From: an uncultured Verrucomicrobiota bacterium | GTDB lineage: Bacteria > Verrucomicrobiota > Verrucomicrobiia > Limisphaerales > UBA9464 | Reading direction: 5' to 3' | DNA: 44,945 bases | NCBI GenBank assembly: GCA_903842505.1 | Contig: CAIMMI010000008.1 | Coordinates: 1 to 44,945 of the forward strand | Part shown: one piece after another, positions 18,032 to 33,950 of the stretch | Position numbering within the stretch: position 1 is the first letter of the stretch | Layout: the number at the start of each line of letters is the position of its first letter | The notes under the pieces: model-generated | What the model saw: the letters and a program-made list of their open reading frames with translations, nothing else | Databases searched by the model: none | Told to the model about the DNA's origin: nothing | Translations under genes and position numbers: made by a program

Positions 18032-18511
18032 TCAGCGGGTGGCGAGGGAGATGGCGGAAGGGCCGGACACGACGGGGTTGCCGGACTTGGGGCGGTAACG
18101 GGCGAAGACGGTGACGCGGTTGCGGGTCGGTGGGGTGCCGGCCCAGGGGAGGGTGAACTCGTATCCGGTGCCGAGTCGGTTCTCGTTGGCGAGCGCCTTG
18201 AGTTGCTGGGGTGAGAACGACCAGATGCGGAGAGGCTTTCCGGTGATGGGTTGGTTGGGGGGGAAGCTTCCGTCGAAGAGGACGATATCGAGCGTGCCCT
18301 GACGGATGCTGACGCCCTTGGGTTGCTGGGCGGTGGAGGCGTAGATGCGGATGGAGAAGGCGTCGGCCCCGGGAACGTTGTCGAGGTTGATGGCGACGGG
18401 GAGGCCGAAGAGGTGGACCTCGGTGATGTCCGATCGGGAGCTGTCGGAGGTGGCGCAGCCCGCGAGGGCGAGGACGAGGGCGGCGACGGTGGTGGCGAGG
18501 GAGCGGCGCAT
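18032..18511 (-). CDS. Small lipoprotein downstream of the giant secretin
   Basis: A 159-residue protein with a lipoprotein signal: positively charged MRR, a hydrophobic core, and the lipobox LAGC with C19 as the lipidated cysteine. Residues +2/+3 are Ala/Thr, which suggests outer-membrane sorting if Lol rules apply. The mature part looks like one compact beta-rich domain (VHLFGLPVAINLDN...FSIRIYAST...GTLDIVLFDG) of no family I recognise. It starts 57 bases after the secretin stop on the same strand, separated by a GATCGGTC hairpin. Position, size and lipidation make it a candidate pilotin or accessory lipoprotein for the secretin, but nothing in the sequence proves this. Confidence 0.8.
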   Translation of the reverse strand: MRRSLATTVAALVLALAGCATSDSSRSDITEVHLFGLPVAINLDNVPGADAFSIRIYASTAQQPKGVSIRQGTLDIVLFDGSFPPNQPITGKPLRIWSFSPQQLKALANENRLGTGYEFTLPWAGTPPTRNRVTVFARYRPKSGNPVVSGPSAISLATR

Positions 18512-18519
18512 GATGGGTA

Positions 18520-18560
18520 GATCAGACCGATCGGATGGATCGGTCTGATCGGTCTGATCT
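18520..18560. repeat. GATCGGTC hairpin between gspD and the lipoprotein gene
   Basis: AGATCAGACCGATC (18520-18533) is the perfect reverse complement of GATCGGTCTGATCT (18547-18560). An overlapping second copy of GATCGGTCTGATC starts at 18538. The hairpin begins 8 bases after the secretin stop on the minus strand and ends 8 bases before the lipoprotein ATG. It could attenuate transcription between the two or protect the long messenger. Related GATC-octamer tracts lie in gspH and gspK. Confidence 0.7.
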
Positions 18561-18568
18561 GTGATGGG

Positions 18569-21500
18569 TCAGGAGCGCGGAGTCTTGCGGCGCTTGTTGT
18601 CGGGAGCGGCGGGGGGCGGCTCGGGGGGGAGGATGGGGTCGACGATGGAGCGTTGGAGGGCGTCGCGCTTGATCTCCTTGTGGAAGGTCGAATTGCGGAT
18701 GATGTCCTGGGTGACCTTCTGGGCGTCTTCGAGGGGGACCTTGTCCTGGTTGTTGGCGAGGACGAGGGGGGTGAGGAAGATGAGGAGTTCCTTGCGTTCG
18801 CGGGTGGACTTGGTGGAGCGGAAGAGGGCTCCGACGTAGGGGATGTCGCCGAGGACGGGCATCTTCTTCACGCGTTTGTCGTCGGTGGTGGAGATGAGGC
18901 CGCCGATGATGATCGTCTGACCGGACTGGACGGAGACGGTGGTATTGGCGCGGCGCTGATTGATGATGGGGACGACGGCGGAGGAGTTGATCTCGACGGT
19001 GGAGGAGGAGAGGGCGGAGTTGGTGGTGCCGAGCTCCATCTTGACGAAGCCGTCGGGGGAGATCTTGGGAGTGACGGTGAGGTTCACGCCGACGTCCTCG
19101 TAGCGGAAGGAGTTGATGGTATCGCCCTGTGGGGTGACGCGGGAGTCGGTGATGAGGGGGATGCGTTGGCCGATGTTGATGGTGGCGGGCTTGTTGTCGG
19201 CGGTGACGATCTGCGGGCGGGAGAGGACTTCGAGGCGACCGTCGGTGCGGAGGGCACGGAGGAGGAAGTTGAAGTCGGTACCGGAGACGGAAGTGGAGTA
19301 GCCGCCGAGGGACTTGAGCTGGTTGGCGACGCCGAAGTCGGTGCCGACGCCGTAATTGACGTCGCCCTTGGATCCGCCGTGGTTCCACTCGATGCCGAGT
19401 TCGCCGAGGGAGTCGAGGGTGACTTCGGCGAGGAGGACCTGGATGAGGACCTGGGGTTGGGCGGTGTCGAGTTCGTCGATGATCTTGCGGACCTGGTCGA
19501 AGTAGCGGCGGTTGGCGGAGACGAGGAGGGTGTTGGAGGTCTGTTCGGCGACGACGGCGACCTCGCGTTCGAGCATGCGCTGGGCGGTGCCGATGGCATC
19601 GGCGCCGAGGACCTGGACGAGGCGTTGGCGTTCCTGGTCGAGGAAGTTGCGGATGGCGGTAGCGACTTCGGGGGCCTGGGAGTTCTTGAGGCGGACGACC
19701 TCGGAGGTGCGTTCGGCGGCGGGGCTGGAGTCGAGGGAGTCGATGATCTGGGAGACGAGGGTGACGTAGTGGTCGGTGCCGCCGATGAGGAGAGAGTTGG
19801 TGCGGGGATCGACGGTGACGGTGAGGGCGTTCTGTTCGGCGGTGCCGAGGGTGACGGAGGCGACGGCCTCGTCCTCGCCTGGGGAGTCGAAGGAGCCATC
19901 GGCGCCGCGGGGGCGGACGAGGGTGTACTGGACGGAGCGCTGGGTACCGTTGGAGGGGGCGGCGGTCATGCGGAAGAGCTGGGTGAGGAGCTCGGACATC
20001 TGACGGGCGTCGGCGTTCTGGAGGGTGAAGACCTTGATCTTGGCCTGTTGGGGGGAAGAGGCGTCGAGGCGGTGGATGATCTGTTCGAGGAGGCCCATGT
20101 ACTCGATGGGGCCGGACACGATGAGGGAATTCATGCGGATGTCCGGGGTGATGAGGACGGCCTCCTTGAGGGCGGCGGTGACGAGTTCCTGGCCCTCCTC
20201 GGTGCGGGTGATGAACTGGAGGAGGGACTGGGCGTTGGGGTTCTGCTCGGTGAGCGGGGTGGGCTTGGTATTGAGGGCGGCGGTGAGGATGGTGGAGAGC
20301 GTTTCGGCGCGGGCGTGTTCGAGGGGGAAGACGCGGATCTCGGCGACGCGGGCGACCTGGTCGGTATCGAGTTGCTTGACGAGTTCGCCGATGCGGCGGG
20401 CGTCGACCTCACCGCAGGAGACGACGAGGGCGTTGATGCGTTCGTCGGCGTTGACGGTGACGGGGAGGATCTGGTTGGGAGTGTTTTCGCGGAACAGGCC
20501 CTGGACGGTGGTGGCGACGCGGCGGGCGTCGGCCTTGGAGAGGGGGAAGACGTGGATGGCGAGGCCGGTCTCGGTGGGCTCGGAGTCGAGCTGCTGGATG
20601 AGGGAAGCGACGGTGTCGAGGTCATCGACGGTGGCGCCGACGAGGAGGGCGTTGACCCAGGCGTCGGCGACGATGGTGATGGGGTCGATGGGCTCGCCCT
20701 TCACCTTGGGTGGGCGGTTGGCGACGATGGACTGGAGGGTGGACTGGAGCTTGGTGGCGGTGGCCTTCTGGAGGGGGAAGACGCGGAAGTTCAGGCGGGA
20801 GAACGTGCCTTCGCCGTCGAGTTGGGGGAGGAGGCGATCGACGAGGTCGAAGGCTTCCTTGCCGCCGGTGACGAGGATCGAGTTGACGCGGTCATCGGGG
20901 ATGACGGCGACGGGGAGGGAGCGTTCGTTGGCGTTGACGGCGATGGCGTCGGCGGTGCGTTTGGAGCGGAAGAACTGTTCGAGGATGGAGGCGAGGGAAG
21001 AGGCGCGGGCGTGGCGGAGTTGGTAGAGCTTCACGTCCGCGGTGGCGGCGAGGTCCTTGGTGTCGATCTTCTGGATGACGCCCTTGACGATGTTCAGGTT
21101 CTCGGGAGAGGCGGAGACGATGAGCGTGTTGGAGCGTGGGTCGACGGAGACGGAGAGGATGTTCTCCGGGGCATTGCGGCCGCGGGGGGCGGTGGTGGGC
21201 ATGCCGGGGCGGTAGAGGCCCTGGTCGACGAGGGAGCGGATGATGGTGGCGACGCGTTGGGCGTCGGCGAACTGGAGGGTGAACATCTCGAAGACGCCGC
21301 CGGGGATGGTGGGTTGGGCGTCGATCTGGGCGACGAGGCCCTGGATCAATTCGAGGTTCTCCTTGGAGGCGGAGATGATGAGGGCGTTGTTGAGAGGATC
21401 GGGTTGCACCTCGATCTGCTGGGAGGGGAGGGGTTGCTGGCCCGGCAGGGTCATGGCGCGGACACGGGCGGCGAAGATGCCTTCGAGGAGGGGGGCGACG

Positions 21501-24500
21501 CGGCCGGAGTCGTTGTTCTTGAGGGGGATGACGGTGAGGGTGAGAGCCGGGTTCTCGAGTTTGGCGTCGAGCTTGGCGAGGAGGTCATCGAGCGTCTTGT
21601 TGTCATCCTGGGAGGCGGCAACGAGGAGGGCATTGGCGCGGGTATCGGGGATGATGATGGGCTTCTGGCGCTGGAGATCGGTGCCGCGGGAGGCGGCGTA
21701 GCGCTGATCGAAGAGGCCGGCGAGGGTGGTGGCGAGGACGCGGGCATCGGCGTGGACGATGGGGACGATGCGGATGCGGCCGGAGAGGGCGGGGCTGGCC
21801 TGGTCGAGTTGCTTGGCGAGGGATTCGACGAGGTCGAAGCCTTCCTTGCTGCCGCCGACGAGGAGGGCGTTGGAGCGGGTGTCCGGGATGATGATCACCT
21901 TGAGGGCATCGGCGGCACCGGCGTTGAGGGTGGCGCGTTGGGTGACGCGCGCGTCCATGAGGCGTTGGAGGGTGGCGGAGACGACGGCGGAGTCGGCGTG
22001 TTCGAGGGGGATGAGGCGGATCTCGCGGAGGTCGAAGGCGAGCTTCTGGTCGAGTTGCTTGAGGAGGCCGTCGATGATGCCGAAGGACTTGGAGGAGCCG
22101 GCGACGATGAGGGAGCCGGAGCGTGCGTCGACGGAGATGATGGGCTTGTCCTCGTTGCGGAGGTTGGCGGCGCGGTTGCCGCTGAAGAGGTCGCCAAGGA
22201 TCTTCTGGATGACGGCGGGGTCGGCGTGCTGAAGGGGGTAGACGCGGACGGTTTCGAGGCCGGAGGCGGCGGGGATGTCGAGTTGGTTGATGATCTCCTC
22301 GACGAGGGGGATCATGTCGGTGCGCGCGGCGATGATGAGGATGTTGGAGACATCGTCGGCCTGGAGGGTGAGGGCGGCGCGGGTCTTGGCGGTCTGGGTG
22401 GTCTTGGAGGCATCGCCGCCCTCACGGAGGGTGCGGAGGCGGGTGATCTGGGTGGCGAGGCCCTCGGTGCCGGGGACGTTGGGTCCTTCGGTGAAGACGG
22501 ACTGGAGGAGGGGGACGAGTCGGGTTGCGGAGGCGTGCTTGAGGCGGAAGAGGCGGACGTCGGTGAGGAAGCGTTCGAGGGGTTGGTCGAGGTCGGTGAT
22601 GACCTTCATGGCCAGGTCGATCGTCTCGGGTTGGCCGGCGAGGACGAGGGTATTGGAGCGGGCGTCGGTGGCGACGTTGAGGGGGTGGACGAGGGCCTTG
22701 CCCTGATCGGACTGGGGTTCTGCGCCGGTGGTGCCACCGGGGCCGGTGGCGAGGCGGGCGCCCTGGGTGAAGATGGTGTTGAGCGTCTGGGCGACGGTGG
22801 CGGCGTCGGCGTGGACGAGTCGGACGAAGCGGACGCGGACGCCCTCGACGATGGCGGGGGTGTCGAGGAGGTCGATGATGGCGGCGAGGGCGGTGAGGTT
22901 GTCCGGAGTGGACGTGACCATGAGGCGGTTGCCACCGGCGCCGGCGGGATCGGGGCTGATGCGGATGGGTTGGGTGAGGTCGAGGGAGACGGGTTTGTCG
23001 TCGGCGGTGCGGACGTTGAGGCGGCGGATCTGTTCCTGGAGTTCGCGGGCCTCGGGGGTGGATTCGCCCTGGGGACCGGGCTTGAGGAGGTTCTGGAGGG
23101 TGACGGCGAGTTGGGTGGCGGAGGCGCGTTTGAGGGGGAAGACGCGGACGTCGGCCTCGATGTTCTTCGCGGGTTGGTCGATGGATTCGATCATCTTGCC
23201 GACCTGGGAGATGACGCCTTCGCGTGCGACGATGAGGAGGCCGCGGTCACGCGGGGAGACCGTGACGGTGACGGGGTCGCCGGGTCGGGTGACATTGAGT
23301 TGGGCGACCATCTGCTGGACGAGCGGGAGAGCCTTGTCGGGCTGGGCGTGCTGGAGGGGGAAGACCTTGAAAGAGACCTGAGCGGCCTCGCCGGCGGCGT
23401 CGAGCTGCTTGATGAGGGATTCGAGGAGGGTGAAGTCGGTGGGGCGGGCGCGAACCACGACGGACCGGGTGCGGGGTTCGGCGACGACGGTGATCTTGGG
23501 CTGTTGGTTGACGACGCGCGGGGGTTGGCCGGGTTGCTGGGGCGGGACCTGCACGGGTTCCTGCTTGAGGACCTCGGAGAGGGTGCGGGCGACGAGGACG
23601 GGGTCGGCGTCCTTGAGGGGGAAGAGGCGGAACTCGGCCTCGTTGCCGTAGAAGTTGAAGGAGAGGTCGGAGATCAGGCGTTCGACCTGATCGAGGTCGG
23701 CGACGGGTCCGGCGAGGATGAGGGCGTTGGCCTCGCGGTCGATGGCGATGGCGACTTCGGTGGGGGCGTTGGTGGAGCCGGCCTCGGGCGGGTTGATCTT
23801 CTCGACCACCTTGAGCGGGGTGCGGGCGGTCTGGGGGTAGATGTTCTCGAGGAGACGGGCCATCTGTTCGGCGGCGACTCGTTCGAGGGTGCGGAGGCGG
23901 ACCTGGTAGGAGGATTCCTTGCCCTGCTCGTCGAGACGGGAGACGAGGTCCTGGATCTGGGCGAGGTCGGACTTCCGGCCGATGACGGTGATCGAGTTGT
24001 TCTTGAGGTCGGGCTCGATGACGGGGCGGTCCTTGCGGGTGCGGTCGGCGAAGAGGGATTCGAGTTGGTCGGCGACGTCGAAGGCGCGTGCCTTCTTGAG
24101 CCAGACGAATTCGACATCGCGGTCGGCGCGTTCGGGGGCCTTGTCGAGGGTGGGGAGGATCTTCTCGACGACGGCGAAGTGGTCGGCGGTGCCGGTGATG
24201 ATGATGGAGTTGGATCGGTCGTCGATGGTGACGGAGGCGCCGCCGCGGTTACCGCCTTCACCGCCGCCGGTGAATTCGCCACCGCCGCCGCCACCGGCGC
24301 GGAAGAACCGGCGACGGGAGACGGTCTGGAGGAGTTGCTGGATGATGGTGGAGACTTCCTTGGCGGTGCCGTTCTCGAGCTTGTAGACGCGGACCTCGAT
24401 CTCGGAGGAGGAGCCTTCGGCGTCGAGTTCGCGGACGATCTTGAGGACGTCCTGAACGGCGTTGGTGGGGCCGTTGAGGAGGATGGAGTTGGCGCCGAGG

Positions 24501-27500
24501 ACGGGGGTGATGGTGACGCGGGAGGCGGGGTTGTAGTTCGGGCGGTTGGTGATGACGCGATTGACGGCGGAGGCGATTTCCTCGGCGCGGCCCTTGGTGA
24601 GGCGGACGGACTGGACGAGGGCGCCGGAGGTGGCGTCGGGGAGTTCGAGGTTCTCGACGATGAGGGTGATGGCGTTGAGTTGGGCTTCGGTGCCGGCGAG
24701 GACGAGTTGGTTGGAAGCGGGGTCGTCGAGGATGAGGGCTTCTCCGTTGCCGAGGTCGGGGTTGGCGCGGGCTTGGTCCTGGAAGAGCTGCTTCACGCGG
24801 GGAGAGAGCTCGGTGGCGCGGCGTTCACGGAGGGTGATGACGCGCATGGACCGGGAGCCGTTGTTGCCGAGGGACTGGTCGAGTTGCTCGATGATGGCGG
24901 TGGCGGCCTGGAGTTCCTTGGGGTCGCCGGTGGTGATGAGGGTGCGGGTCTTGGAGTCGACGGTGACGGTGACGCGCTTTTGCGGGCGACCGAAGGCGTC
25001 GTAGCGGACGAGGGCGGTGGAGAGGATCTCGGCGACCTTTTCGGGGTCGGCGGACTTGAGTTTGACGATGCGGGTGGAGGCGGACTGGGCGGAGACCTTG
25101 TCGAGTTTGCGGATGATGTCCTCGACGATGGCGAGTTCGTTGGTGGCGGCGGTGACGATGAGGCGGTTGGCGCCGGTGTCGGGGAGGATGAGGGTATCGG
25201 TGGCGGGGGCGCCGGGGCGGGTCTTGGCCTGCTCGGTGTAGAGGGTGCGGACGGTGGTGGCGAGTTCGGCGGCGTTGGCGGTGGAGAGGTCGATGACGCG
25301 GGTCTCGCGGGGCTGGGTGTTCGAGTCGTTGCCGCGGAGTTGGGTGATGATCCGTTCGATCTCGACGAGGTGGTTGGTGCGGGCGGTGACGATGAGGCGG
25401 GCGTTCTTGACGTCCGGGACGAAGACGGCGTCGGGGCGGTCGGTCGGGTTGTTGGTCGAGCGGACCTGGTAGAGTTGTTGGACGAGAGGTTGGAGGCGGG
25501 TGAGTTCCTCCGCGGAGCCGAGCTCGATGAAGCGCGTTTCGCGGGCGGCGGTGGCGCCCTGGGCGGCCTGGAGTTCGGAGACGATCTTCTCGACGACGGT
25601 GAGTTGTTCGTCGGAGCCGGCGAGGATGAGTTGGTTGGAGTCGGGGTCGTCGAGGATGAGGAGTTCGGCGGTGCCGAGTTCGGGCTGGGCCTGGACGCGG
25701 TCGGAGTAGAGCTGGCGGACGCGGGGGATGATGGTGGAGGCGCGACCCTGGGTGAGGGTCATGACCTTCATGCGGCGTTCGGATTGGGAGCCGAGGCCCT
25801 GGTCGAGTTGGTCGATGATGGAAGAGACGCCCTGGAGCTCCTTGGGATCACCGGTGACGATGAGGGTGCGGGTCTTGGCGTCGACAGAGACGGCGACGCG
25901 TTTCTGGGGGCGGCCGTAGGAGTCGAAGCGGACGAGGGTGGTGGAGAGGATCTCGGCGACCTTGGAGGGTTCGGCGGACTTGATCTTGAAGACGCGGGTG
26001 GAGGCGGACTGGTTGCCGACCTTGTCGAGTTTGCGGACGAGGTCCTCGACGATGGCGAGTTCGTTGGTGGCGGCGGTGATGATGAGGCGATTCGCGCCGG
26101 AGTCGGGGAGGATGAGGGTGTCGGCGGCGGGAGCGCCGGGGCGGTTGCGGGCCTGCTCCTGGTAGAGGGTGCGAACGGTGGTGGCGAGTTCGGCGGCGTT
26201 GGCGGTGGAGAGGTCGAGGATGACGGTCTCGCGGGGCTGGGCGGCGGTGTTGTTGCCGCGGAGTTGGGTGAGGATCGAGTCGATCTCGGCGAGGTGGTTG
26301 GTGCGGCCGGTGATGATGAGGCGGGCGTTGCGCGTGTCCGGGACGAAGACGGCGTCGGCGGGATCGGACGGGTTGTTCTTCGAGCGGTCCTGGTAGAGCT
26401 GCTGGACGAGGGGCTGAAGGCGGGAGAGTTCCTCGGCGGAGGTGAATTCGAGGATGCGGGTCTCGCGGGCGGAACGGGCGGTCTGGGCGGACTGGAGGTC
26501 GTTGACGATCTGTTCGACGGCGGCGAGCTGCTGCTCGGATCCGGCGAGGATGAGTTGGTTGGATTCGGAGTCCTCGAGGATGAGGATTTCGTCGGTGCCG
26601 AGGTCGGGCTGGGACTTGATGCGGTCGGCGAAGATCTGGCGGACCTTGGGGGAGAGGGTGGCGGCGCGGCCCTGGGTGAGGGTGACGACCTTCATGCGGC
26701 GGTCGGAGGAAGTGCCGAGGGACTGATCGAGTTGCTCGATGATGAGGGAGACGCCCTGGAGTTCCTTGGGGTCGCCGGTGACGATGAGGGTGCGGGTCTT
26801 GGCGTCGACGGAGACGGTGGTGCGCTTTTGGGCGCGGCCATAGGCGTCGTAGCGGACGAGGGCGGTGGAGAGGATCTCGGCGACCTTGGAGGGTTCGGCG
26901 GACTTGATCTTGAAGACGCGGGTGGAGGCGGACTGGTTGGAGACCTTGTCGAGCTTGCGGACGATATCCTCGATGGAGGCGAGCTCGTTGGTTTCGCCGA
27001 CGAGGATGAGGCGGTTGGCGCCGGCGTCGGGGGTGATGAGGGTATCGGGGGTAGCGGTGCCGAAGCGGGACTTGGCCTGTTCGAGGTAAAGGGTGCGGAC
27101 GGTGGAAGCGAGTTCGACGGCGGAGGCGGTGGTGAGGTCGAGGATGCGGGTCTCGCGGTTGGAGGAGGAAGTGGACTTGGAGGTGCCGACCTGTTGGAGG
27201 ATGGCCTCGATCTGTTTCAGGTGATCGGGCTTGCCGGTGATGATGAGGCGGCCGGAGCGGGGATCGGGGAGGACCTGGGCGTCGGCGGGGTCGGACTCGG
27301 AGCGTTCCTTCCACTGATCCTGGTAGAGTTGCTGGACGAGGGGAGCGAGGCGTTGGGCATCGGAGACGGAGCCGACGTCGACGGTGCGGGTTTCGCGGGA
27401 GGGGGAGGCGGTGCCGACGTTGCCCTGGAGGCGTTCGATGACGGCGACGATGTTGGTCATCTGGTCCGAGCGGGCGGAGACGATGATGCGACCGGTGCGG

Positions 27501-30500
27501 GCGTCGGTGATGAACTGGGCGTCGGGGGTACCGAGTTCGGGGTTGCCGTTGAGTTGGTCGCGGTAGAGTTGCTGGGCGAGGGGGAGGATGCGGTTGGCCT
27601 CGGACATGCGGCCGAGGTCGAAGACGCGGGTTTCGCGTGCTGGGCGAGCTGGGGCGGCGAGGGTTTCTACGATCTGCTTGATGGAGGCGGCCTGTTCGGG
27701 GGTGCCCTGGACGAGGAGTCGAGCGCCGGTGGGATCCGGGTAGAGGGTGGCGGGCTTGAGGGTCTTGCCGGCGGCCTGTTCGGTGTAGATCGACTGGACG
27801 CGGGGGAGGATCTCGGCGGCGGTGACGTTCTTGAGGTCGATGGGGTGGAGTTCGCGGTTGCCCTGTTCGGGCTTGGTGTCGAGGGAGGTGATGACCTGCT
27901 CGATCTGGGCCATGAGGTTGGCCGGGGCGGTGGCGATGATGCGCTTGGAGGCGGGCTCCGGGGTGAGGGAGACCGGGTTGACGGTGGCGCGGGGGTTCTG
28001 GGAGGTGAAGACCTTGTTGGCGAGGGTGGCGATGGTGTCGGGGTCGCCCTTGATGTCGAAGATGCGGAGGATGCGTTCGCGGGAGCCGGGGGTGGAGGCG
28101 GAGCCACCGGAATCGTTGTCGAGTTTCTCGATGACGGATTCGGCGTCCTGGAGGTCGGCGCGGGTGCCGGAGACGACGAGCGAGTTGGATTTGTCGTCGG
28201 CGGTGACGGTGACGCGGCGGATGGGGTTGCCGCGGGTGTCGTAGCGCATCATCGCGGAGGAGACGATGGGCGCCATCATGGTGGCGTCGGATTGGTTGAG
28301 CTTGAAGACGCGGGCGCCGGGGGCCTGCTGGGGTGCGTTGTCGAGTCGGGTGAGGAGGGAAGCGACCTGTTCGATTTCCTCGCGTGGGCCGGTGACGAGG
28401 ATGCGGTTGCCGGCGGGGTCGGCGGTGATCTTGGTGGTGGAGACGAACTCGGGGCCGTGCTGGTCGCGGAGGAGTTCGGTGAAGAGGTTGTTGAGGGTGG
28501 GGGTGATGGAGGAGGCGTCGGACGACTTGAGGTCGAGGATGCGGAACTCGCGAGGTCCGGCGTCGTTGCGGGTATCGAGTTGCTGGATGATCTGGCCGGC
28601 CTGTTCGACGGCGGCCTTGTCCCCGGAGACGACGAGGGAGTTGGAGCGGGTGTCGAGGATGACGCGGACGAGTTGGCCCTGGGCGTTGACGGATTTCTCG
28701 ATGAGGGAGGCGAGTTCGGTGGCGGAGGCGGTTCGGAGCCGGAAGACGCGGGTTTCCTCCTTGGAAGCCTTGCGGTCGTTGGGGTCGAGTTGGCGGATGA
28801 TGGCTTCGACGCGGGCGATTTCCTTGTCGGAGCCGGAGACCATGAGGCGGTTGAGCTTGGTTTCGGCGAGGACGGAGGCCGGGCCGCCGGCGGGTTCGGG
28901 GAGGCCCTTGATCTGTTCTGCGTAGAGTTGCTGGACGATCGGGGCGATCTCGGCGGCCTGACGGGACCCGAGTTCGATGGCCTTGAAGGAGCGGGGGGCG
29001 GAGGCGGCGGGCGAGGTGTCGAACTGGCGGACGAGGGTCCGGATCCGTTCGATGTCATTGGTGCCGGCGAGGGCGAGGATCTGCTTGCCGGTGGGATCGG
29101 GGATGAGGGTCGGGGCCTCGGAGTTTGGGGTGCGGAGTTGACCGAGGAGTTGATTGACGAGAGGGATGACCTCGGAAGCGGGCTTGGTGGAGAGGGGGAT
29201 GATCGTCAGGTCGCGGCGGTTGGCGTCGGTGGCGGTGTCGACGATGGAGACGATCTGTTCGATCTCGCGGAGTTGGTCCTCGGTGGCGGTGATGAGGAGG
29301 CGGTTGTTGGGGGCGTCGGCGACGAGGGAGGGTTTGGGGATTGAGTTGAAGCGGCGGTCGCTGAGGCGTTCGTTGAGGAGCGACTGGATGGAGGGGAGGG
29401 CGACGTCGGGTTTGGTGTGGGCGAGGGTGACGACCTTCAGTTTGCGGGGCTGGGGGTCGGATTTCTCGGCGCGGAGTTGGCGGACGAGGCCCTCGATGCG
29501 GGTGAGGTGTTCCTCGGAGGCGGTGACGATGAGACGGCCGGAGTCTGGATCGGTGATGATGCGGGCGTGGGCGGCGGAGGAAGAGGTGCCGGAGGTGGTC
29601 TGGGCCCGGTAGAGTTGTTCGACGAGGGGGAGGAGGCGTTTGGCTTCCTCTGGGGAGCCGACCTCGATGAATCGGGTCTGGAGGGCGACGGGTTGGGTGG
29701 AGCCGGTTTCGAGTTGGGAGACGATGTCGGCGGCGATCTGGACATCGTTCAGGGTGCCGGAGACCACGACCGACTGGGAGGTGCCATCGACGGAGATGGA
29801 GGCGGTGGTGGAGGGGGAGCCGTTGGGGGCGCGGCGGGTGAGGGCCTGGGTGAGGATGGAGGCGACGTTGGTGACCTCACCGGAGCGCGGTCGGAAGATG
29901 CGGGTGAGTTGGACGGAAGCGGACTTGTTCGGGGTGCCGCCGGAGGAGAGGGCGGGGGAGGAGCCGCCGCCCTGGATGGCGCCCTTGTCGACGCGGGAGA
30001 TGAGTTGCTCGATCTGTTCGAGTTGGCCGGGGATGGGAGCGGCGACGATGAGGCGGTTCTGCTGGGCGTCGGGGATGACGCGGGCCTTGGTGGCGGCGTT
30101 GGCGGCGGTTTCGTTGGGGCCAGCGACGGCGGGGATGGCCTGGCGGATGATGTTGGCCAGTTCCTCGGGTTTGACGGTCTGGGGGTAATAGATGCGGACG
30201 TCCCCGGCGGCGCCGTCCTTCTGTTCGAACTTGTTGATCAGTTGTTCGGCGAGGGCGAGGCGTTCGTCGGGGCCGAAGAGGACGAGGATTCGGGAGGCTT
30301 CGTCGTAGACGGCGGTGATGTAGTCCTTGGGATCCGGCGGGAGAACGTCCATTCCCTTGGTGTTGGGATTGAAGGCGGTCCGTTTTGGGGCGGTGGCGAG
30401 GCCGAAGGTCCGGTTGAGGAGATCGGAGATGATGGCGCCGGACGCATTGAGGAGCGTGTAGGTGCGCATCTGGCGTTCGGCGGCCTCCTGGTTGTCGAGG

Positions 30501-31213
30501 GTGGCGAGGAGGGAGCGGACGCGCTGGATGTTGGCGAGACGGTCGGTGATGACGAGGCGGCGGCCGCGTCCGAGGGGAGCGACGGCGCCGGCATTGGAGA
30601 GCATGGGGGTGACCGACTCGGCGACCTCGCGGGCGTCGAGGCCGTCGAGGTCGAGGACGACGGAGACGACGTCACCGGGGCGGACCTCACCGGTGGGGTC
30701 GGTGCCGCGGAGGATGGGGATGGGGAGGGAGCGGAGGTCCTTGAAGGGGACGAGGCGGAGTTGGTTGCCGGTGTCGAGGAGCATGACCCCCTTCATGGAG
30801 AGGATCAGGTTGAGCGTCTCGATGGCCTCTGGGAACGTGTAGGAGACGGGGTCGTTGTAGGAGAGGGTGCCGACGACGTTGGTGTCGGAGAGGAGCGGCT
30901 TGCCGGACATCTGGGCGAAGCGTTCGAGGACATCGGAGTAGGGGATGCCATCGAACTGGAACCGGATGTTGCGGGCGGGGTTGTTGGTGAGTGGCGCGGG
31001 CGTGGTCTGGCCGGCGACGACGATCTCACGGTTGGGTGTGGGCGCAGCGGGTGCGCTGGGTGCGGGTTGGGCGGAGGGAGCGGGCGGCTTGGGAGCATCG
31101 CTGGTGGCCGGGGCCTGGGCGAGGGAACGGGAGGCGATGCCGAGGGCGGCGAGCGCGGCGAGGAATGAGGTCGACTTCATGATGCGGGGACGGAAAGGGA
31201 TTGGGTGGGTCAC
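18569..31213 (-). CDS. gspD: Giant type II secretion secretin (GspD) with about 46 N-domain modules
   Basis: A 4214-residue secretin, the outer-membrane channel of the type II system. An N-terminal signal peptide (MKSTSFLAALAAL... to SLAQA, residues 12-34) is followed by a Pro/Ala linker and an STN/N0-like domain (83-157). From residue 182 to about 3919 I count 46 consecutive Secretin_N (N1-type) modules of 67-110 residues. Each has a first strand of the R-x-F-x-L type, a helix, then D-x-R-x-N-x-L-I-V and a last helix ending in Q-L-D. Normal GspD has three. The pore domain (about 3920-4165) is standard: VLIQVLLAEVTL, SRPQIVTADNKPA, VGVNLTVTPKI, SVQSGQTIIIGGLI and VPxLGxIPxxG-type MPVLGDIPYVGALF. 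A 50-60-residue charged tail follows. The GTG start forms a GTGA overlap with the upstream gene, a pattern repeated in this operon; ATG at 31180 is the alternative. Residues 1273-2198 are three four-module blocks. Confidence 0.95.
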   Translation of the reverse strand: MTHPIPFRPRIMKSTSFLAALAALGIASRSLAQAPATSDAPKPPAPSAQPAPSAPAAPTPNREIVVAGQTTPAPLTNNPARNIRFQFDGIPYSDVLERFAQMSGKPLLSDTNVVGTLSYNDPVSYTFPEAIETLNLILSMKGVMLLDTGNQLRLVPFKDLRSLPIPILRGTDPTGEVRPGDVVSVVLDLDGLDAREVAESVTPMLSNAGAVAPLGRGRRLVITDRLANIQRVRSLLATLDNQEAAERQMRTYTLLNASGAIISDLLNRTFGLATAPKRTAFNPNTKGMDVLPPDPKDYITAVYDEASRILVLFGPDERLALAEQLINKFEQKDGAAGDVRIYYPQTVKPEELANIIRQAIPAVAGPNETAANAATKARVIPDAQQNRLIVAAPIPGQLEQIEQLISRVDKGAIQGGGSSPALSSGGTPNKSASVQLTRIFRPRSGEVTNVASILTQALTRRAPNGSPSTTASISVDGTSQSVVVSGTLNDVQIAADIVSQLETGSTQPVALQTRFIEVGSPEEAKRLLPLVEQLYRAQTTSGTSSSAAHARIITDPDSGRLIVTASEEHLTRIEGLVRQLRAEKSDPQPRKLKVVTLAHTKPDVALPSIQSLLNERLSDRRFNSIPKPSLVADAPNNRLLITATEDQLREIEQIVSIVDTATDANRRDLTIIPLSTKPASEVIPLVNQLLGQLRTPNSEAPTLIPDPTGKQILALAGTNDIERIRTLVRQFDTSPAASAPRSFKAIELGSRQAAEIAPIVQQLYAEQIKGLPEPAGGPASVLAETKLNRLMVSGSDKEIARVEAIIRQLDPNDRKASKEETRVFRLRTASATELASLIEKSVNAQGQLVRVILDTRSNSLVVSGDKAAVEQAGQIIQQLDTRNDAGPREFRILDLKSSDASSITPTLNNLFTELLRDQHGPEFVSTTKITADPAGNRILVTGPREEIEQVASLLTRLDNAPQQAPGARVFKLNQSDATMMAPIVSSAMMRYDTRGNPIRRVTVTADDKSNSLVVSGTRADLQDAESVIEKLDNDSGGSASTPGSRERILRIFDIKGDPDTIATLANKVFTSQNPRATVNPVSLTPEPASKRIIATAPANLMAQIEQVITSLDTKPEQGNRELHPIDLKNVTAAEILPRVQSIYTEQAAGKTLKPATLYPDPTGARLLVQGTPEQAASIKQIVETLAAPARPARETRVFDLGRMSEANRILPLAQQLYRDQLNGNPELGTPDAQFITDARTGRIIVSARSDQMTNIVAVIERLQGNVGTASPSRETRTVDVGSVSDAQRLAPLVQQLYQDQWKERSESDPADAQVLPDPRSGRLIITGKPDHLKQIEAILQQVGTSKSTSSSNRETRILDLTTASAVELASTVRTLYLEQAKSRFGTATPDTLITPDAGANRLILVGETNELASIEDIVRKLDKVSNQSASTRVFKIKSAEPSKVAEILSTALVRYDAYGRAQKRTTVSVDAKTRTLIVTGDPKELQGVSLIIEQLDQSLGTSSDRRMKVVTLTQGRAATLSPKVRQIFADRIKSQPDLGTDEILILEDSESNQLILAGSEQQLAAVEQIVNDLQSAQTARSARETRILEFTSAEELSRLQPLVQQLYQDRSKNNPSDPADAVFVPDTRNARLIITGRTNHLAEIDSILTQLRGNNTAAQPRETVILDLSTANAAELATTVRTLYQEQARNRPGAPAADTLILPDSGANRLIITAATNELAIVEDLVRKLDKVGNQSASTRVFKIKSAEPSKVAEILSTTLVRFDSYGRPQKRVAVSVDAKTRTLIVTGDPKELQGVSSIIDQLDQGLGSQSERRMKVMTLTQGRASTIIPRVRQLYSDRVQAQPELGTAELLILDDPDSNQLILAGSDEQLTVVEKIVSELQAAQGATAARETRFIELGSAEELTRLQPLVQQLYQVRSTNNPTDRPDAVFVPDVKNARLIVTARTNHLVEIERIITQLRGNDSNTQPRETRVIDLSTANAAELATTVRTLYTEQAKTRPGAPATDTLILPDTGANRLIVTAATNELAIVEDIIRKLDKVSAQSASTRIVKLKSADPEKVAEILSTALVRYDAFGRPQKRVTVTVDSKTRTLITTGDPKELQAATAIIEQLDQSLGNNGSRSMRVITLRERRATELSPRVKQLFQDQARANPDLGNGEALILDDPASNQLVLAGTEAQLNAITLIVENLELPDATSGALVQSVRLTKGRAEEIASAVNRVITNRPNYNPASRVTITPVLGANSILLNGPTNAVQDVLKIVRELDAEGSSSEIEVRVYKLENGTAKEVSTIIQQLLQTVSRRRFFRAGGGGGGEFTGGGEGGNRGGASVTIDDRSNSIIITGTADHFAVVEKILPTLDKAPERADRDVEFVWLKKARAFDVADQLESLFADRTRKDRPVIEPDLKNNSITVIGRKSDLAQIQDLVSRLDEQGKESSYQVRLRTLERVAAEQMARLLENIYPQTARTPLKVVEKINPPEAGSTNAPTEVAIAIDREANALILAGPVADLDQVERLISDLSFNFYGNEAEFRLFPLKDADPVLVARTLSEVLKQEPVQVPPQQPGQPPRVVNQQPKITVVAEPRTRSVVVRARPTDFTLLESLIKQLDAAGEAAQVSFKVFPLQHAQPDKALPLVQQMVAQLNVTRPGDPVTVTVSPRDRGLLIVAREGVISQVGKMIESIDQPAKNIEADVRVFPLKRASATQLAVTLQNLLKPGPQGESTPEARELQEQIRRLNVRTADDKPVSLDLTQPIRISPDPAGAGGNRLMVTSTPDNLTALAAIIDLLDTPAIVEGVRVRFVRLVHADAATVAQTLNTIFTQGARLATGPGGTTGAEPQSDQGKALVHPLNVATDARSNTLVLAGQPETIDLAMKVITDLDQPLERFLTDVRLFRLKHASATRLVPLLQSVFTEGPNVPGTEGLATQITRLRTLREGGDASKTTQTAKTRAALTLQADDVSNILIIAARTDMIPLVEEIINQLDIPAASGLETVRVYPLQHADPAVIQKILGDLFSGNRAANLRNEDKPIISVDARSGSLIVAGSSKSFGIIDGLLKQLDQKLAFDLREIRLIPLEHADSAVVSATLQRLMDARVTQRATLNAGAADALKVIIIPDTRSNALLVGGSKEGFDLVESLAKQLDQASPALSGRIRIVPIVHADARVLATTLAGLFDQRYAASRGTDLQRQKPIIIPDTRANALLVAASQDDNKTLDDLLAKLDAKLENPALTLTVIPLKNNDSGRVAPLLEGIFAARVRAMTLPGQQPLPSQQIEVQPDPLNNALIISASKENLELIQGLVAQIDAQPTIPGGVFEMFTLQFADAQRVATIIRSLVDQGLYRPGMPTTAPRGRNAPENILSVSVDPRSNTLIVSASPENLNIVKGVIQKIDTKDLAATADVKLYQLRHARASSLASILEQFFRSKRTADAIAVNANERSLPVAVIPDDRVNSILVTGGKEAFDLVDRLLPQLDGEGTFSRLNFRVFPLQKATATKLQSTLQSIVANRPPKVKGEPIDPITIVADAWVNALLVGATVDDLDTVASLIQQLDSEPTETGLAIHVFPLSKADARRVATTVQGLFRENTPNQILPVTVNADERINALVVSCGEVDARRIGELVKQLDTDQVARVAEIRVFPLEHARAETLSTILTAALNTKPTPLTEQNPNAQSLLQFITRTEEGQELVTAALKEAVLITPDIRMNSLIVSGPIEYMGLLEQIIHRLDASSPQQAKIKVFTLQNADARQMSELLTQLFRMTAAPSNGTQRSVQYTLVRPRGADGSFDSPGEDEAVASVTLGTAEQNALTVTVDPRTNSLLIGGTDHYVTLVSQIIDSLDSSPAAERTSEVVRLKNSQAPEVATAIRNFLDQERQRLVQVLGADAIGTAQRMLEREVAVVAEQTSNTLLVSANRRYFDQVRKIIDELDTAQPQVLIQVLLAEVTLDSLGELGIEWNHGGSKGDVNYGVGTDFGVANQLKSLGGYSTSVSGTDFNFLLRALRTDGRLEVLSRPQIVTADNKPATINIGQRIPLITDSRVTPQGDTINSFRYEDVGVNLTVTPKISPDGFVKMELGTTNSALSSSTVEINSSAVVPIINQRRANTTVSVQSGQTIIIGGLISTTDDKRVKKMPVLGDIPYVGALFRSTKSTRERKELLIFLTPLVLANNQDKVPLEDAQKVTQDIIRNSTFHKEIKRDALQRSIVDPILPPEPPPAAPDNKRRKTPRS
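24620..25543 (-). repeat. gspD super-repeat unit 3 (308 codons)
   Basis: Residues 1891-2198 of the secretin. Four modules begin RETRFIELGSAEEL, RETRVIDLSTANAAEL, STRIVKLKSADPEKV and RSMRVITLRERRATEL. They match units 1 and 2 in order and length. The DNA marker AGAGGATCTCGGCGACCTT is at 25021. Confidence 0.92.
25544..26467 (-). repeat. gspD super-repeat unit 2 (308 codons)
   Basis: Residues 1583-1890. The modules start RETRILEFTSAEEL, RETVILDLSTANAAEL, STRVFKIKSAEPSKV and RRMKVMTLTQGRAST. The same DNA marker is at 25945, exactly 924 bases from the copy in unit 3. By eye its second module is about 84% identical to that of unit 3. Confidence 0.92.
26468..27397 (-). repeat. gspD super-repeat unit 1 (310 codons)
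   Basis: Residues 1273-1582. The modules start RETRTVDVGSVSDAQ, RETRILDLTTASAVEL, STRVFKIKSAEPSKV and RRMKVVTLTQGRAAT. The DNA marker is at 26869, again 924 bases on. The first module is two residues longer and more diverged, so this is the oldest or boundary copy. Confidence 0.88.
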
Positions 31214-32220
31214 GGGTTGCGTGCGAGTGAGGTCGGCAGTTCGGCCGGACCCAGTTTGCGTTTGTCGGCGAAGGAGCGTCCGCGTTCGATGGCCCAGTAT
31301 TCGGAGCCGATTCGGAGGATGACGCGACTGTGGGAAAGGAGGCCGGGTTGGGAAGGGGAGGGGAGAGGTCTGTAGTCGATCATGACGACGGAGCCGCCGG
31401 CCATTTCGTCACCGACCTTGAATCGGAGGGTGCGTTGGGCGGCGGTGTCGCGGACGTGGATCTCGGGTTGGCCCTGCCATTCGGAGAGGGAGACGACGCG
31501 GAACGATTCAGGACCTGGAGGGCGTGGCGGGCCGGCGACGGCGGGATTGCCGGGGGAGCCCGGGGGCGGGACCGGAGGTTGGGGTGGGCGCTTGATGTAG
31601 GGCCGGAAAAAGTCGCGGGAGACGATGCCGTTGAGGAGGGCGCGGTCCGGGGAGTCGAGGGTGAGTTTTCCGGCGAGGTCCTTGCGGGTGACGTCGGGTG
31701 CGGGATCGAGGACGAGGGTCAGGTATGAGAAGGAGACGCGGACATCGCCGGGGCGGTTGCCGGCGGAGACGGAGAGTCCCTCGAGGCGGTGGACCCAGGG
31801 GGAGTCGTTGAGGAGGTAGAGGAGGTGGACGATGTTGGTGAGGGGGCCGTCGCCCTGGACGTTCCAGCCGATTTCCTGGGCGCCGCGGAGTTTGCGGGGG
31901 CCGAAGAAGGATCGGGTGAATTCGGATTCGGCGAGGCGCGCGTCGGCGAAGGTGCGGGTGAGGATTTCGCCGGACTTGGCGGCGGCCTGGTCGACGGTAT
32001 CGGCGAAGGTGCGGGCGCCGATGACCTTGAGGTTGTCCTCGGCGGCGAAGAAGGCGCGTTGGTCGGCCTTGATCTTGGCGAGTTTCTCGCGGGTGACGTC
32101 GATGTTCTTGCGGACCTCGAGGACGGGCTTGAGGACGAAGGACCGGATGCCGAAGAAGCCGCCGAAGAGGAGGAAGATGCTGCCGACGGCGCCGGCGAGG
32201 ATCTTTTCGCGCTGGTTCAC
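31210..32220 (-). CDS. GspM/PilO-like inner-membrane protein with a C-terminal GspC/PilP-like domain
   Basis: A 336-residue bitopic protein. A short cytoplasmic N-terminus and one membrane span (about 7-25, ILAGAVGSIFLLFGGFFGI) lead into a helical coiled-coil-like stretch (KNIDVTREKLAKIKADQ) and an alpha/beta domain like PilO/GspM (TNIVHLLYLLNDSPWVHRLEGLSVS...VRVSFSYLTLVL). A Pro-rich linker (about 220-245) joins a C-terminal beta-rich domain (FRVVSLSEWQGQPEIHV...LRFKVGDEM.GGSVVMID...SRVILRIG), which has the pattern of the GspC HR or PilP domain that binds secretin N0. No separate gspC is present, so this protein may combine both jobs in linking the inner-membrane platform to the giant secretin. 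It overlaps gspL (GTGA) and gspD (GTGA) by 4 bases each. The family assignment rests on position and topology more than on strong motifs. Confidence 0.72.
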   Translation of the reverse strand: MNQREKILAGAVGSIFLLFGGFFGIRSFVLKPVLEVRKNIDVTREKLAKIKADQRAFFAAEDNLKVIGARTFADTVDQAAAKSGEILTRTFADARLAESEFTRSFFGPRKLRGAQEIGWNVQGDGPLTNIVHLLYLLNDSPWVHRLEGLSVSAGNRPGDVRVSFSYLTLVLDPAPDVTRKDLAGKLTLDSPDRALLNGIVSRDFFRPYIKRPPQPPVPPPGSPGNPAVAGPPRPPGPESFRVVSLSEWQGQPEIHVRDTAAQRTLRFKVGDEMAGGSVVMIDYRPLPSPSQPGLLSHSRVILRIGSEYWAIERGRSFADKRKLGPAELPTSLARNP

Positions 32221-33950
32221 GCGCCACCTCCGCGCTTCATGAGGGCCGGGTCGAGGGATCCGTCATCGGCGGGCCGGGCTGGGGTCTTGAGCTTGGTGAT
32301 ATCGATCTTGAGTTTGGCTGGGATGAGGAGTTCGACGACGGAGGCGAAGTCGTATCCGTAGCGATCGGAGCCCGGGGTGATGGCGGAGGGTTTGACGTCG
32401 TAGCCGGCGGCGCGGAGTTGTTTGTCGAGGCGGGCGATGATTTCGCCGGAGCGTGCCTGGACGGCGATGCGGAGGGAGCCCTGGCCGGTGACGGAAAACT
32501 TCTTGATGTAGAGATCCTCGGAGGGAGGGAGGACGGCGGAGAGGAGGGCGAAGTGGTCGGTCCAGTCCCGGCCGGTCTTGATCCAATTATCGACGGTGGT
32601 GCCCTGGAGGATGCCGCGGCGGTAGATGGGGCGCTTCTTTTCGGCGTCCATCAGTTCGGCGTAGGCCTGATTGTACCGTTCGGTTTCGCGGCGGACGAGG
32701 GTGGTGCGGATGCCGAAGGTGGCGACGAGGGTGAGGATGCCGGCGGTCGCTCCGAGGAGGATCTTGAGTCGGCGGGTGTCGCGTTGGACGGGGGGGCGTT
32801 TGGGATTGAGGAAGTCGAAGGGGAGGCCGACGCGGTCGGCGAGTCCGAGGGCGAGTCCGAGGGCGGCGAGGGCGCCGGGGGCCTGGGCGCTGGCGTCACC
32901 GGTGAGGTGGAGTGGGCCAGCGGGGTCGAGGTGGGTGGTGGGGAGGCCGAGTCGATCGGCGAGGACGGTGGAGAGTTCGGCTTCGAAGCCGGTGGCGCCG
33001 GCGACGACGATCTTGGTGATCGAAGAGTCGGGCTCGGATCCGGAGAAGGCGTGGAGCGAGCGGAGGGTTTCGCGGGCCGCGTGCTGGACGAGGGAAAGGG
33101 ACTCCGGGCGTGGGACCGGGGAGTTGGCGGGGTCGGTTGAGTCCGTTGGGGAGGGATCGGGGGAGGCGGAGAAGTTGGTGGCGCGGGAGAAGAGGAGGGC
33201 GTCGTGGGAGAGGACCTCGATGGTGACCTCGTCCGGGCGGAGGGAGACGAGGGCGAAGGCGTTGTCGGTATCGGCGACGTGGCAGGCCTGGATGCAGCGG
33301 GCGTGGGCGTGCGGGAGGAATCCGAGGGCGGCGAGTTTGAGGCCGGCGGATTCGGCGAGTTGCTGGTGGAAGGTGATGGTGTCGCGTTTGACGACGGCGA
33401 CGAGAACCTCGAGTCGGGAGGTTGAGGTGGATTGGGTGGGGTTGGGTGGGGAGGCCGATGCGGGAGAGCCCGGAGTGGTTTCGGGGGCTTGGGTGGCGCG
33501 TTGGGGGACGTTGATGGTGCGGCGGACCTGGAAGTCGACGATGGCGTCCTCCGGGCGGAAGGGGAGGTCGCGACCGGCCTGGAGGTGGACGAGGCTGGCG
33601 AGTTCGCCGGCGTTCTGGACCGGGGGCAGGAGGAGGCTGCGGAGGACGACCTGGGCGCGGGGGATGCCCATGACGAGGGTCGCGGGCTTGATGCGGAGTT
33701 TGGCGAGAGCGCGGGCGATGGCTGGGCCGACGATGGCCGGGTCGGTGCGGTTGGCGTCCGGGGGAAGTTCGAGGGAGGCGGAAGCGAGCTTGGTGACGAC
33801 GGGTCCGCCGGAGCGTTGGGTGGCCTGGCAGACGCGGAGGGTGTTGCCGTCGAGGTCGACGGCAGTGACGACCGCGGGGGTGCGTTGGCGCTTGTCCCGG
33901 ACAAACGGGAGGCGGCGCCGCGGCGGATCCTGGATCGCGGGGTCAGACAT
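32217..33950 (-). CDS. gspL: GspL / PilM-PilN-like platform protein
   Basis: A 577-residue inner-membrane platform protein. Residues about 20-390 form a PilM/GspL actin-like cytoplasmic domain. It starts VVTAVDLDGNTLRVCQ, then has TLVMGIPRAQVVLRSLLLPP and LVHLQAGRDLPFRPEDAIVDFQV, and ends LAALGLALGLADRVGLPFDFLNP. A single membrane span follows at about 397-415 (ILLGATAGILTLVATFGI). The periplasmic part has a coiled-coil stretch and a ferredoxin-like PilN/GspL domain (LYIKKFSVTGQGSLRIAVQA). It connects the GspE ATPase to the pseudopilus and to GspM. I chose ATG at 33950; the open frame extends 44 codons further through a dispersed repeat and gspK. It overlaps gspK by 8 bases and the gspM-like gene by 4. 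Confidence 0.85.
   Translation of the reverse strand: MSDPAIQDPPRRRLPFVRDKRQRTPAVVTAVDLDGNTLRVCQATQRSGGPVVTKLASASLELPPDANRTDPAIVGPAIARALAKLRIKPATLVMGIPRAQVVLRSLLLPPVQNAGELASLVHLQAGRDLPFRPEDAIVDFQVRRTINVPQRATQAPETTPGSPASASPPNPTQSTSTSRLEVLVAVVKRDTITFHQQLAESAGLKLAALGFLPHAHARCIQACHVADTDNAFALVSLRPDEVTIEVLSHDALLFSRATNFSASPDPSPTDSTDPANSPVPRPESLSLVQHAARETLRSLHAFSGSEPDSSITKIVVAGATGFEAELSTVLADRLGLPTTHLDPAGPLHLTGDASAQAPGALAALGLALGLADRVGLPFDFLNPKRPPVQRDTRRLKILLGATAGILTLVATFGIRTTLVRRETERYNQAYAELMDAEKKRPIYRRGILQGTTVDNWIKTGRDWTDHFALLSAVLPPSEDLYIKKFSVTGQGSLRIAVQARSGEIIARLDKQLRAAGYDVKPSAITPGSDRYGYDFASVVELLIPAKLKIDITKLKTPARPADDGSLDPALMKRGGGA

What the first reader, a model, noticed from the sequence alone, without database searches (positions are those of the whole stretch)
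18569..31213. A 4214-residue secretin with about 46 tandem ring-forming modules
Seen: one uninterrupted frame codes a signal peptide, one STN/N0-like domain, about 46 N1-like modules and one standard secretin pore domain. Known: T2SS secretins have N0 plus three N1-type domains, and about 15 subunits form stacked periplasmic rings. Inference: if every module formed a ring of the usual 2-3 nm height, the stack would be on the order of 100 nm, far more than an ordinary periplasm. So the modules must fold back, stay as flexible arms, form only some rings, or the envelope must be unusual. It could also be a secreted or surface filament scaffold that uses the secretin pore to cross the outer membrane. 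It lies in a complete T2SS operon and the frame is intact, so it is probably functional.
Basis: partly seen in the sequence, partly recalled or inferred. Interest (0 to 1): 0.95.

Follow-up and report, generated by a model that had tools for sequence, protein, structure and literature searches.

The report
Giant secretion pore with 46 modules
A bacterium that appears to belong to the Verrucomicrobiota carries, in an ordinary-looking protein-export operon, an outer-membrane pore protein with about 46 ring-type modules instead of the usual few; giants of the same kind, with roughly 20 to 62 modules and sometimes cut into two separately exported genes, occur in many genomes of two phyla, which suggests a very long export tube across the cell envelope.

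Summary
Window 18569-31213(-) is one open frame of 4214 aa: signal peptide, GspD-type N0, 46 contiguous Secretin_N/N1-type modules (Pfam passes 42; my iterated profile 46), a T2SS-type secretin pore and a helical tail. It ends a GspE-F-G-H-I-J-K-L-M-D operon and is followed by a small lipoprotein, a candidate pilotin. It is not a misassembly: at least 20 of 58 related genomes (own included) have frames of 3000 aa or more, and so have at least 41 of 198 genomes of a planctomycete class (Phycisphaerae by record titles), four of them essentially single-contig. Within the own family and its nearest relatives modules are individually orthologous and under purifying selection; recent change came in four-module blocks. 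All 76 giant rows of a pore tree group together. In nine planctomycete loci the giant is two adjacent genes, a pore-less 22-28-module protein and a 13-17-module pore protein, each with a signal-like N-terminus. This favours stacked rings over covalent arms. Best reading: a GspD elongated into a transperiplasmic tube, perhaps over 100 nm. Rings and length are inferred.

The parts
18569..31213 (-). giant GspD-type secretin gene, 4214 aa from GTG (4203 aa from ATG at 31180)
31115..31213 (-). N-terminal signal peptide (residues 1-33; MKSTSFLAALAALGIASRSLAQ from residue 12)
   Evidence: read by eye from the translation; no predictor run
30719..30976 (-). N0 domain of GspD type (about residues 80-165)
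   Evidence: profile A4 to GspD N0-N1 in PDB, E 1.2e-13; PF21305 at E <= 0.1 in 20 of 20 members
19463..30652 (-). array of 46 contiguous Secretin_N / N1-type modules (residues 188-3917)
24641..27148 (-). youngest part of the array: four-module (308-aa) block repeated nearly three times (M16-M26), 50-88% identical at offsets of four and eight modules
18758..19255 (-). secretin pore domain (residues 3987-4152)
   Evidence: PF00263; T2SS GspD 15-mers as best PDB matches
18572..18757 (-). C-terminal tail with predicted helices, in the place of the T2SS S-domain
   Evidence: model of A3; S-domain role is by analogy (PMC6532946 passages)
18032..18511 (-). 159-aa lipoprotein directly downstream, candidate pilotin
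   Evidence: lipobox LALAGC by eye; homologue on the same strand within 1300 bases downstream of the pore frame in 24 of 25, 58 of 78 and 2 of 5 loci with room; no Pfam match
31210..32220 (-). GspM-like protein: one hydrophobic N-terminal segment, 336 aa
   Evidence: position and anatomy by eye; no Pfam match; conserved upstream of the giant
32217..34082 (-). GspL-like protein with PilM similarity (frame 621 aa)
   Evidence: PF11104, E 2e-16
33943..35571 (-). GspK-like minor pseudopilin (the listed frame runs on to 36783)
   Evidence: NF037980, E 1e-9, under its cut-off; HHH_3 and a T2SSK match just under its cut-off
35568..36374 (-). GspJ-like minor pseudopilin
   Evidence: prepilin-type N-terminus by eye; weak gspJ match, E 0.07; no Pfam match
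36371..36832 (-). GspI-like minor pseudopilin
   Evidence: TIGR01707, E 9e-6, under its cut-off; no Pfam match
36829..37614 (-). GspH-like minor pseudopilin
   Evidence: PF12019; TIGR01708, E 2e-10
37650..38156 (-). GspG major pseudopilin
   Evidence: TIGR01710 over its cut-off
38403..39917 (-). GspF inner-membrane platform protein (frame 504 aa, true start probably later)
   Evidence: PF00482, E 2e-52
39605..41272 (-). GspE ATPase
   Evidence: PF00437, E 1e-133; TIGR02533 605.9 bits, just under its cut-off of 630

Best explanation
It is the secretin (GspD) of a type II secretion system in a Pedosphaerales-like verrucomicrobial bacterium, lengthened about tenfold by tandem duplication of its N1-type ring module. 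SHOWN: sequence architecture, T2SS operon context, conservation and purifying selection, grouping of the giants in a pore tree, natural two-gene versions, conserved adjacent lipoprotein. INFERRED: about 15 subunits form the outer-membrane pore; the modules stack as coaxial rings into a hollow tube of roughly 100 nm or more (46 rings at 2-3 nm each), some 7 MDa; the lipoprotein helps to bring the pore end to the outer membrane; the N0 at the far end meets the GspL/M/pseudopilus platform of the inner membrane, so that exported proteins are led through a periplasm much wider than in E. coli. The number of modules sets the reach; in this lineage it changed recently in steps of four modules.
For: (1) The modules have the secretin N1 signature: Pfam; the model of M36-M41 shows repeated beta-alpha-(alpha)-beta-beta-alpha, and all 29 Foldseek hits at E <= 0.001 are T2SS or T3SS secretin entries. 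(2) N0 at one end, T2SS-type pore and S-like tail at the other. (3) Linkers of 8-11 aa in 42 of 44 cases, a constant step. (4) Modules correspond one to one: L039 41 aligned, 40 reciprocal best, 67% identity against a matrix mean of 28%; module dN/dS median 0.10 and 0.20 against two relatives. (5) The system seems to come and go as a unit: of 12 genomes the GspL neighbour is clear in four (G001, G020, G024, G032); three of these have giant arrays (4010 aa; 40 modules in a broken frame; 39 modules up to a contig end) and in G001 the contig ends after GspM; seven have no match, and their listed secretin frames do not exceed 1320 aa; G036 has only a weak PilM-like match. (6) Nine loci with the array cut into two adjacent genes, pore only in the downstream product in 9 of 9, all 18 products beginning with a signal-like hydrophobic segment: a stack of rings tolerates a break between rings. 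(7) A smaller secretin of the own genome is also in two pieces, about four modules and one module plus pore, as in three of three genomes looked at. [quoted passage not shown] channel about 35 nm (PMC4463427, passages). Strain Ellin514 of verrucomicrobial subdivision 3 has a paryphoplasm (PMC2647929, passages), which others read as enlarged periplasm (PMC3422733, passages).
Against: No ring, tube or protein product has been seen. Both models are of moderate confidence (pLDDT 68-69, pTM 0.37), so the relative placing of modules is not predicted. The own genome has three other secretins of ordinary size, which could hardly bridge a uniformly 100-nm periplasm. V. spinosum, P. dejongeii and C. flavus have the same paryphoplasm plan; I could not look them up by name, but in the class sample no listed genome outside the own order has more than 13 Secretin_N hits, so a wide periplasm does not seem to require a giant. 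In a planctomycete, crateriform structures sit where the two membranes are close (PMC5394234, passages). GspC, which normally links N0 to the inner membrane, was found in 0 of 8 genomes. TamB, which could have served as a ruler of periplasm width, was also found in 0 of 8, so that test could not be made. In 9 of 17 Phycisphaerae giants there are one or more stretches of 178-417 aa without a recognised module, which would interrupt a regular stack.
Confidence: 0.5

Rival explanations
1. Only the membrane-proximal modules form rings; the remaining modules of each chain are flexible beaded arms, which fill the periplasm, tether the pore to peptidoglycan or the inner membrane, or catch substrates.
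For: Low inter-module confidence of both models (pTM 0.37). Modules in the C-terminal half tend to have longer loops than those in the N-terminal half. [quoted passage not shown]
Against: The two-gene forms leave the N-part without a covalent link to the pore, so as arms they would need another attachment. Uniform linkers and one-to-one module orthology suggest a defined arrangement.
Confidence: 0.25
2. A tube used locally: the giant spans deep invaginations or junctions of the envelope (or contributes to structures like the planctomycete crateriform contacts with their 12-nm fibres) rather than the general periplasm, and may guide a pilus or pseudopilus more than soluble proteins.
For: Ordinary-size secretins in the same genome; crateriform structures link outer and inner membranes and bear pili-like fibres (PMC5394234, passages); a set of pseudopilins in the operon.
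Against: That paper is on Planctopirus and Gemmata; I could not test whether such species carry giants, and 'secretin' does not occur in its text. No direct link.
Confidence: 0.15
3. The frame is a misassembly or a decaying repeat array with no full-length product.
For: Most relatives are metagenome-assembled contigs; long arrays are prone to assembly error; several loci have broken frames (L082/L060, L185, probably L115 and L170).
Against: Similar lengths in at least 20 of 58 relatives and at least 41 of 198 planctomycete genomes, four of these essentially one contig; dN/dS medians 0.10-0.20 with no module above 0.63; one-to-one orthology of modules.
Confidence: 0.02

Closest known systems
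T2SS secretin GspD / PulD / XcpQ / ExeD (15-mers, e.g. 6hcg, 5wq7, 5zdh)
   Same: Signal peptide, N0, N1-type modules, pore, S-like tail; best sequence and fold matches; operon with GspE-M; small lipoprotein beside it, in the manner of pilotins.
Thermus thermophilus PilQ
   Same: Extra stacked rings, explained in print by a wide periplasm (PMC5745081, passages; PMC4463427, passages).
   Different: Six N-terminal rings and 757 residues, against N0 plus 46 modules; type IV pilus and DNA uptake, not T2SS.
Deinococcus DR_0774 secretin (8co1, titled Type II Secretion System)
   Same: Top Foldseek match of the mid-array model.
   Different: 740 aa, so no giant array. The structure paper was not found or read.
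MCE ring tunnels (LetB), recalled only
   Same: Transperiplasmic tunnel made of stacked rings from tandem modules in one chain.
   Different: Unrelated fold and lipid cargo; recalled, from no call.

Membership tests
Secretin superfamily (PF00263) | C-terminal secretin pore domain | tested here: met
   E 1e-50, residues 3987-4152; modelled beta-rich pore, best fold hits are secretins
Secretin superfamily (PF00263) | Sec signal peptide and N-terminal periplasmic N domains | tested here: met
   Signal by eye; 42 Pfam / 46 own-profile modules
Secretin superfamily (PF00263) | 12- to 15-mer ring in the outer membrane | not testable with these tools
   No multimer prediction or experiment; the best solved T2SS relatives have 15 chains an entry
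GspD (T2SS secretin) | Score over the GspD equivalog cut-off | tested here: met
   TIGR02517 1292.7 against 351.35 bits; repeats inflate the sum, and the PilQ and SctC models also pass their cut-offs
GspD (T2SS secretin) | GspD-type N0 domain | tested here: met
   Profile to GspD N0-N1, E 1.2e-13; own copy alone only E 0.02-0.09, under the Pfam cut-off
GspD (T2SS secretin) | Usual length and three N1-type domains | tested here: not met
   4214 aa, 46 modules; hence 'variant', not plain member
Type II secretion system | GspE, F, G, H, I, J, K, L, M with the secretin | tested here: met
   I, J, K and M rest on weak matches, anatomy and position
Type II secretion system | GspC linking protein | tested here: not met
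   PF11356 in 0 of 8 genomes, own included; the same search rings in 2 of 14 controls; a diverged GspC is not excluded
Type II secretion system | Export of folded proteins by this machine | not testable with these tools
   no experiment
T2SS pilotin (GspS/AspS) | Small lipoprotein that binds the secretin C-terminus | tested here: inconclusive
   Adjacent, conserved, lipobox; no Pfam match; binding untested

The most novel reading that the evidence does not exclude
Bacteria of two phyla (a verrucomicrobial order and Phycisphaerae) build the longest secretion channels known: tubes of about 20 to 62 stacked secretin rings, about 100 nm or more and several megadaltons, reaching across an enlarged periplasm; module number acts as a ruler that evolves by block duplication, and in one planctomycete clade the tube is assembled from two separately secreted proteins, a pore-less ring stack docked on a pore-bearing one.
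Probability: 0.42. Interest if true: 0.95.

Novelty: new variant of a known kind. Interest (0 to 1): 0.86.

Why it matters
[quoted passage not shown] It would show how bacteria with a wide, invaginated envelope (the long-debated PVC cell plan) still export proteins, and it offers a molecular ruler: species differ in module number, so the predicted tube length can be compared with periplasm width by cryo-tomography. The natural two-gene forms make the ring-stack idea directly testable. My ten searches of the open PMC library listed no paper whose title or abstract start describes giant secretins; that library lacks most subscription journals and all preprints.

Tried and rejected
Misassembly or decayed array: rejected. 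Surface filament: not favoured, on topology. Planctomycete origin of the window, my first guess from its DUF1501/PSD1 genes: corrected to Verrucomicrobiota by titles of related records. Wide-periplasm ruler from TamB length: not possible, PF04357 matched in 0 of 8 genomes. A short GspD at the same place: L115 (1189-aa frame) looked like one, but its GspM homologue lies 7.8 kb upstream of the pore, so the frame is probably broken. Reading the four-module step as universal: rejected; offset four dominates in the own family, but Phycisphaerae giants show few recent duplicates (none or one pair each, at offset four or five, in 16 of 17), L145 shows a mixture, and some relatives have offsets of one, two or three. 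A crude lipobox pattern found a lipoprotein downstream in only 41 of 108 loci with room, because pattern and frame choice miss many; the homology search counts better but misses 20 of the 78 loci (16 of them titled Phycisphaer- or Planctomycetota; L115 counts as a miss because its frame is broken) and 3 of 5 further Phycisphaerae loci. A strict N0 pattern matched 24 of 41 giants, only 1 of 17 in Phycisphaerae; profiles did better, but one Phycisphaerae N-terminus (L150) and one N-part (L160) showed no N0 match at E 0.1. The pore pattern fails in most loci; one search repeats it with a profile. Before the tree I dropped the L001-L033 rows except eight, as clipped copies of giants or for want of length, and took 16 of the 80 loci.

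Full report
WHAT IS THERE. The minus strand of 18569-31213 holds one open frame of 4214 codons. It starts at a GTG that overlaps the stop of the upstream GspM-like gene, or at an ATG eleven codons further on. A signal peptide (by eye) is followed by a GspD-type N0 domain, then 46 modules of the Secretin_N/N1 type between residues 188 and 3917 (Pfam alone passes 42 of them), a secretin pore at 3987-4152, and a tail with predicted helices. NCBIfam names it GspD; a profile search of solved structures ranks T2SS GspD chains first.

THE MODULES. The model of M36-M41 (25 aligned sequences, mean pLDDT 69, pTM 0.37) shows six repeats of the N1-type order of strands and helices; all 29 Foldseek matches at E <= 0.001 are T2SS or T3SS secretin entries. 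The second model (M43 to the end, 30 sequences, pLDDT 68, pTM 0.37) matches GspD, PulD and ExeD best. Module positions relative to each other are not predicted with confidence. Linkers are 8-11 aa in 42 of 44 cases.

SURROUNDINGS. Upstream, in the same direction, lie GspE, F, G, H, I, J, K, L (PilM-like) and M; I, J, K and M rest on weak matches and position. GspC was found in 0 of 8 genomes tested. Directly downstream is a 159-aa lipoprotein (18032-18511). A homologue lies on the same strand within 1300 bases downstream of the pore frame in 24 of 25 loci of near relatives, 58 of 78 loci of the named-genome scan and 2 of 5 further Phycisphaerae loci, counting loci with more than 700 bases of room; the first two sets overlap in part. 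I take it as a candidate pilotin by position.

RELATIVES. In 58 related genomes (own included), at least 20 have a secretin frame of 3000 aa or more; several others are cut by contig ends. In a class-wide sample of 286 genomes, 15 have at least 20 Secretin_N hits, all of the own order, and no listed genome outside the order has more than 13; the search scores at most 20 candidate stretches a genome, so the counts are lower bounds. In 240 genomes of the phylum (no other member of the order in the draw) no listed frame besides the own exceeds 1214 aa; the list is cut at the best rows. In the class of the complete chromosome CP070772.1 (G324), at least 41 of 198 genomes have frames of 3000 aa or more, up to 6169 aa (my count of a list that is cut). 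G324, G333, G368 and G496 have the gene on a contig about as long as the genome. Module counts: 28-46 in 24 verrucomicrobial frames, 42 in ten of them; 35-62 in 17 planctomycete frames; the shortest frame with a signal-like start and N0-like motif has 20 (L162).

EVOLUTION. Modules correspond one to one between species: against L039, 41 aligned and 40 reciprocal best at 67% identity, against a matrix mean of 28%; against L053 of another family 45 aligned, 38 reciprocal best, 63%. Four modules of the repeat region (M21-M24 in this alignment) have no partner in L039, which has one unpaired module itself; M16-M26 form a four-module repeat. Against L034 the correspondence is weaker (34 aligned, 24 reciprocal). 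Against 16 of 17 planctomycete giants it is poor (13-24 aligned, 4-12 reciprocal best; L145 28 and 19), so those arrays diverged or were rebuilt. dN/dS by module has median 0.10 (L038, 45 modules) and 0.20 (L036, 42 modules); maxima 0.63 and 0.49. In a tree of 85 pores the 76 giant rows (eight or more modules in the frame) lie on one side of a branch (96/96; 98% of bootstrap trees), with verrucomicrobial giants nested among planctomycete ones, which suggests transfer between phyla; the root is a midpoint, the short rows are only nine, and the program warns of long branches. Of 12 genomes searched for the GspL neighbour, four have it clearly (G001, G020, G024, G032), G036 has a weak match, seven have none. 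G020 has the giant; G024 has 40 modules in a broken frame and G032 39 modules up to a contig end; in G001 the contig ends after GspM. The seven without include G026 and G028, which lack the giant although genus-mates have it.

CUT GIANTS. Of 16 planctomycete loci examined, nine (L160, L168, L169, L172, L175-L179) hold two complete adjacent genes: 2601-3084 aa with 22-28 modules, then 1556-1843 aa with 13-17 modules. A pore profile finds a pore in 0 of 9 upstream and 9 of 9 downstream products. All 18 products start with a hydrophobic signal-like segment, judged by hydropathy and eye. L161 (interrupted by Ns), L171 and L174 (cut by contig ends) fit the same plan; L170 looks frame-broken, L173 is cut, L180 and L181 are intact. 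Eleven rows (the nine, L161 and L174) form one clade (100/96). In the own genome a normal-size secretin is likewise in two pieces.

HOW IT MOST LIKELY WORKS. The pore end sits in the outer membrane, perhaps brought there by the lipoprotein; the N0 end faces the inner-membrane platform; the modules between stack as rings into a tube. The strongest argument for rings rather than arms is that the array can be cut into two secreted proteins. The reason for the length is probably a wide periplasm: six rings let Thermus PilQ cross most of its wide periplasm (PMC5745081, passages), and strain Ellin514 of verrucomicrobial subdivision 3 has a paryphoplasm (PMC2647929, passages), read by others as enlarged periplasm (PMC3422733, passages). 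Against a simple ruler: ordinary secretins in the same genome, other Verrucomicrobia with that cell plan while giants are seen only in the own order of the class sample, and module-free stretches of 178-417 aa in 9 of 17 planctomycete giants.

NOVELTY. The parts are all known; the scale, the spread over two phyla, the two-gene form and the module-by-module conservation are not described in the papers that my ten searches listed. Giant genes in planctomycetes are known in general (PMC5177795, passages; 'secretion system' does not occur in it), and giant proteins in other PVC lineages (PMC12057145, passages; 'secretion' does not occur). I file it as a new variant of GspD.

Noticed in passing
G000:C351:28500-35500 (L182); L183, L184: A normal-size secretin is encoded in two adjacent secreted pieces: a 524-543-aa frame with an N0-like start (by eye) and about four modules, and a 415-463-aa frame with its own signal-like segment, one module and the pore (three of three genomes looked at).
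   Followed up: partly
L145 (G374:C18), 6169 aa: Longest giant seen: 62 modules, with 48 module pairs at least 50% identical at mixed offsets, i.e. a young, actively changing array.
   Followed up: partly
L152 residues 2848-3265 and L154 residues 3203-3419: Module-free stretches inside intact giants; in L152 proline-rich with a hydrophobic signal-like segment, as if two genes of the cut kind had fused.
   Followed up: no
window 18512-18568: The 57-base gap between the giant and the lipoprotein gene holds an inverted repeat (AGATCAGACCGATC and GATCGGTCTGATCT); terminator, attenuator or repeat element.
   Followed up: no
window 18653-29344 (+): An antisense frame of 3563 codons lies open across the giant gene; probably a by-product of codon use, as its translation is low-complexity.
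   Followed up: no
window 294-3410 (-): Protein kinase domain fused to WD40 repeats, a eukaryote-like signalling protein.
   Followed up: no
L063, L087, L095, L097: Record titles at odds with the tree or kinship: Akkermansia (L063 and others), Proteobacteria (L087, L095) and Phycisphaeraceae (L097) for rows among the verrucomicrobial giants; probably labels of unclassified MAGs or transfers.
   Followed up: no
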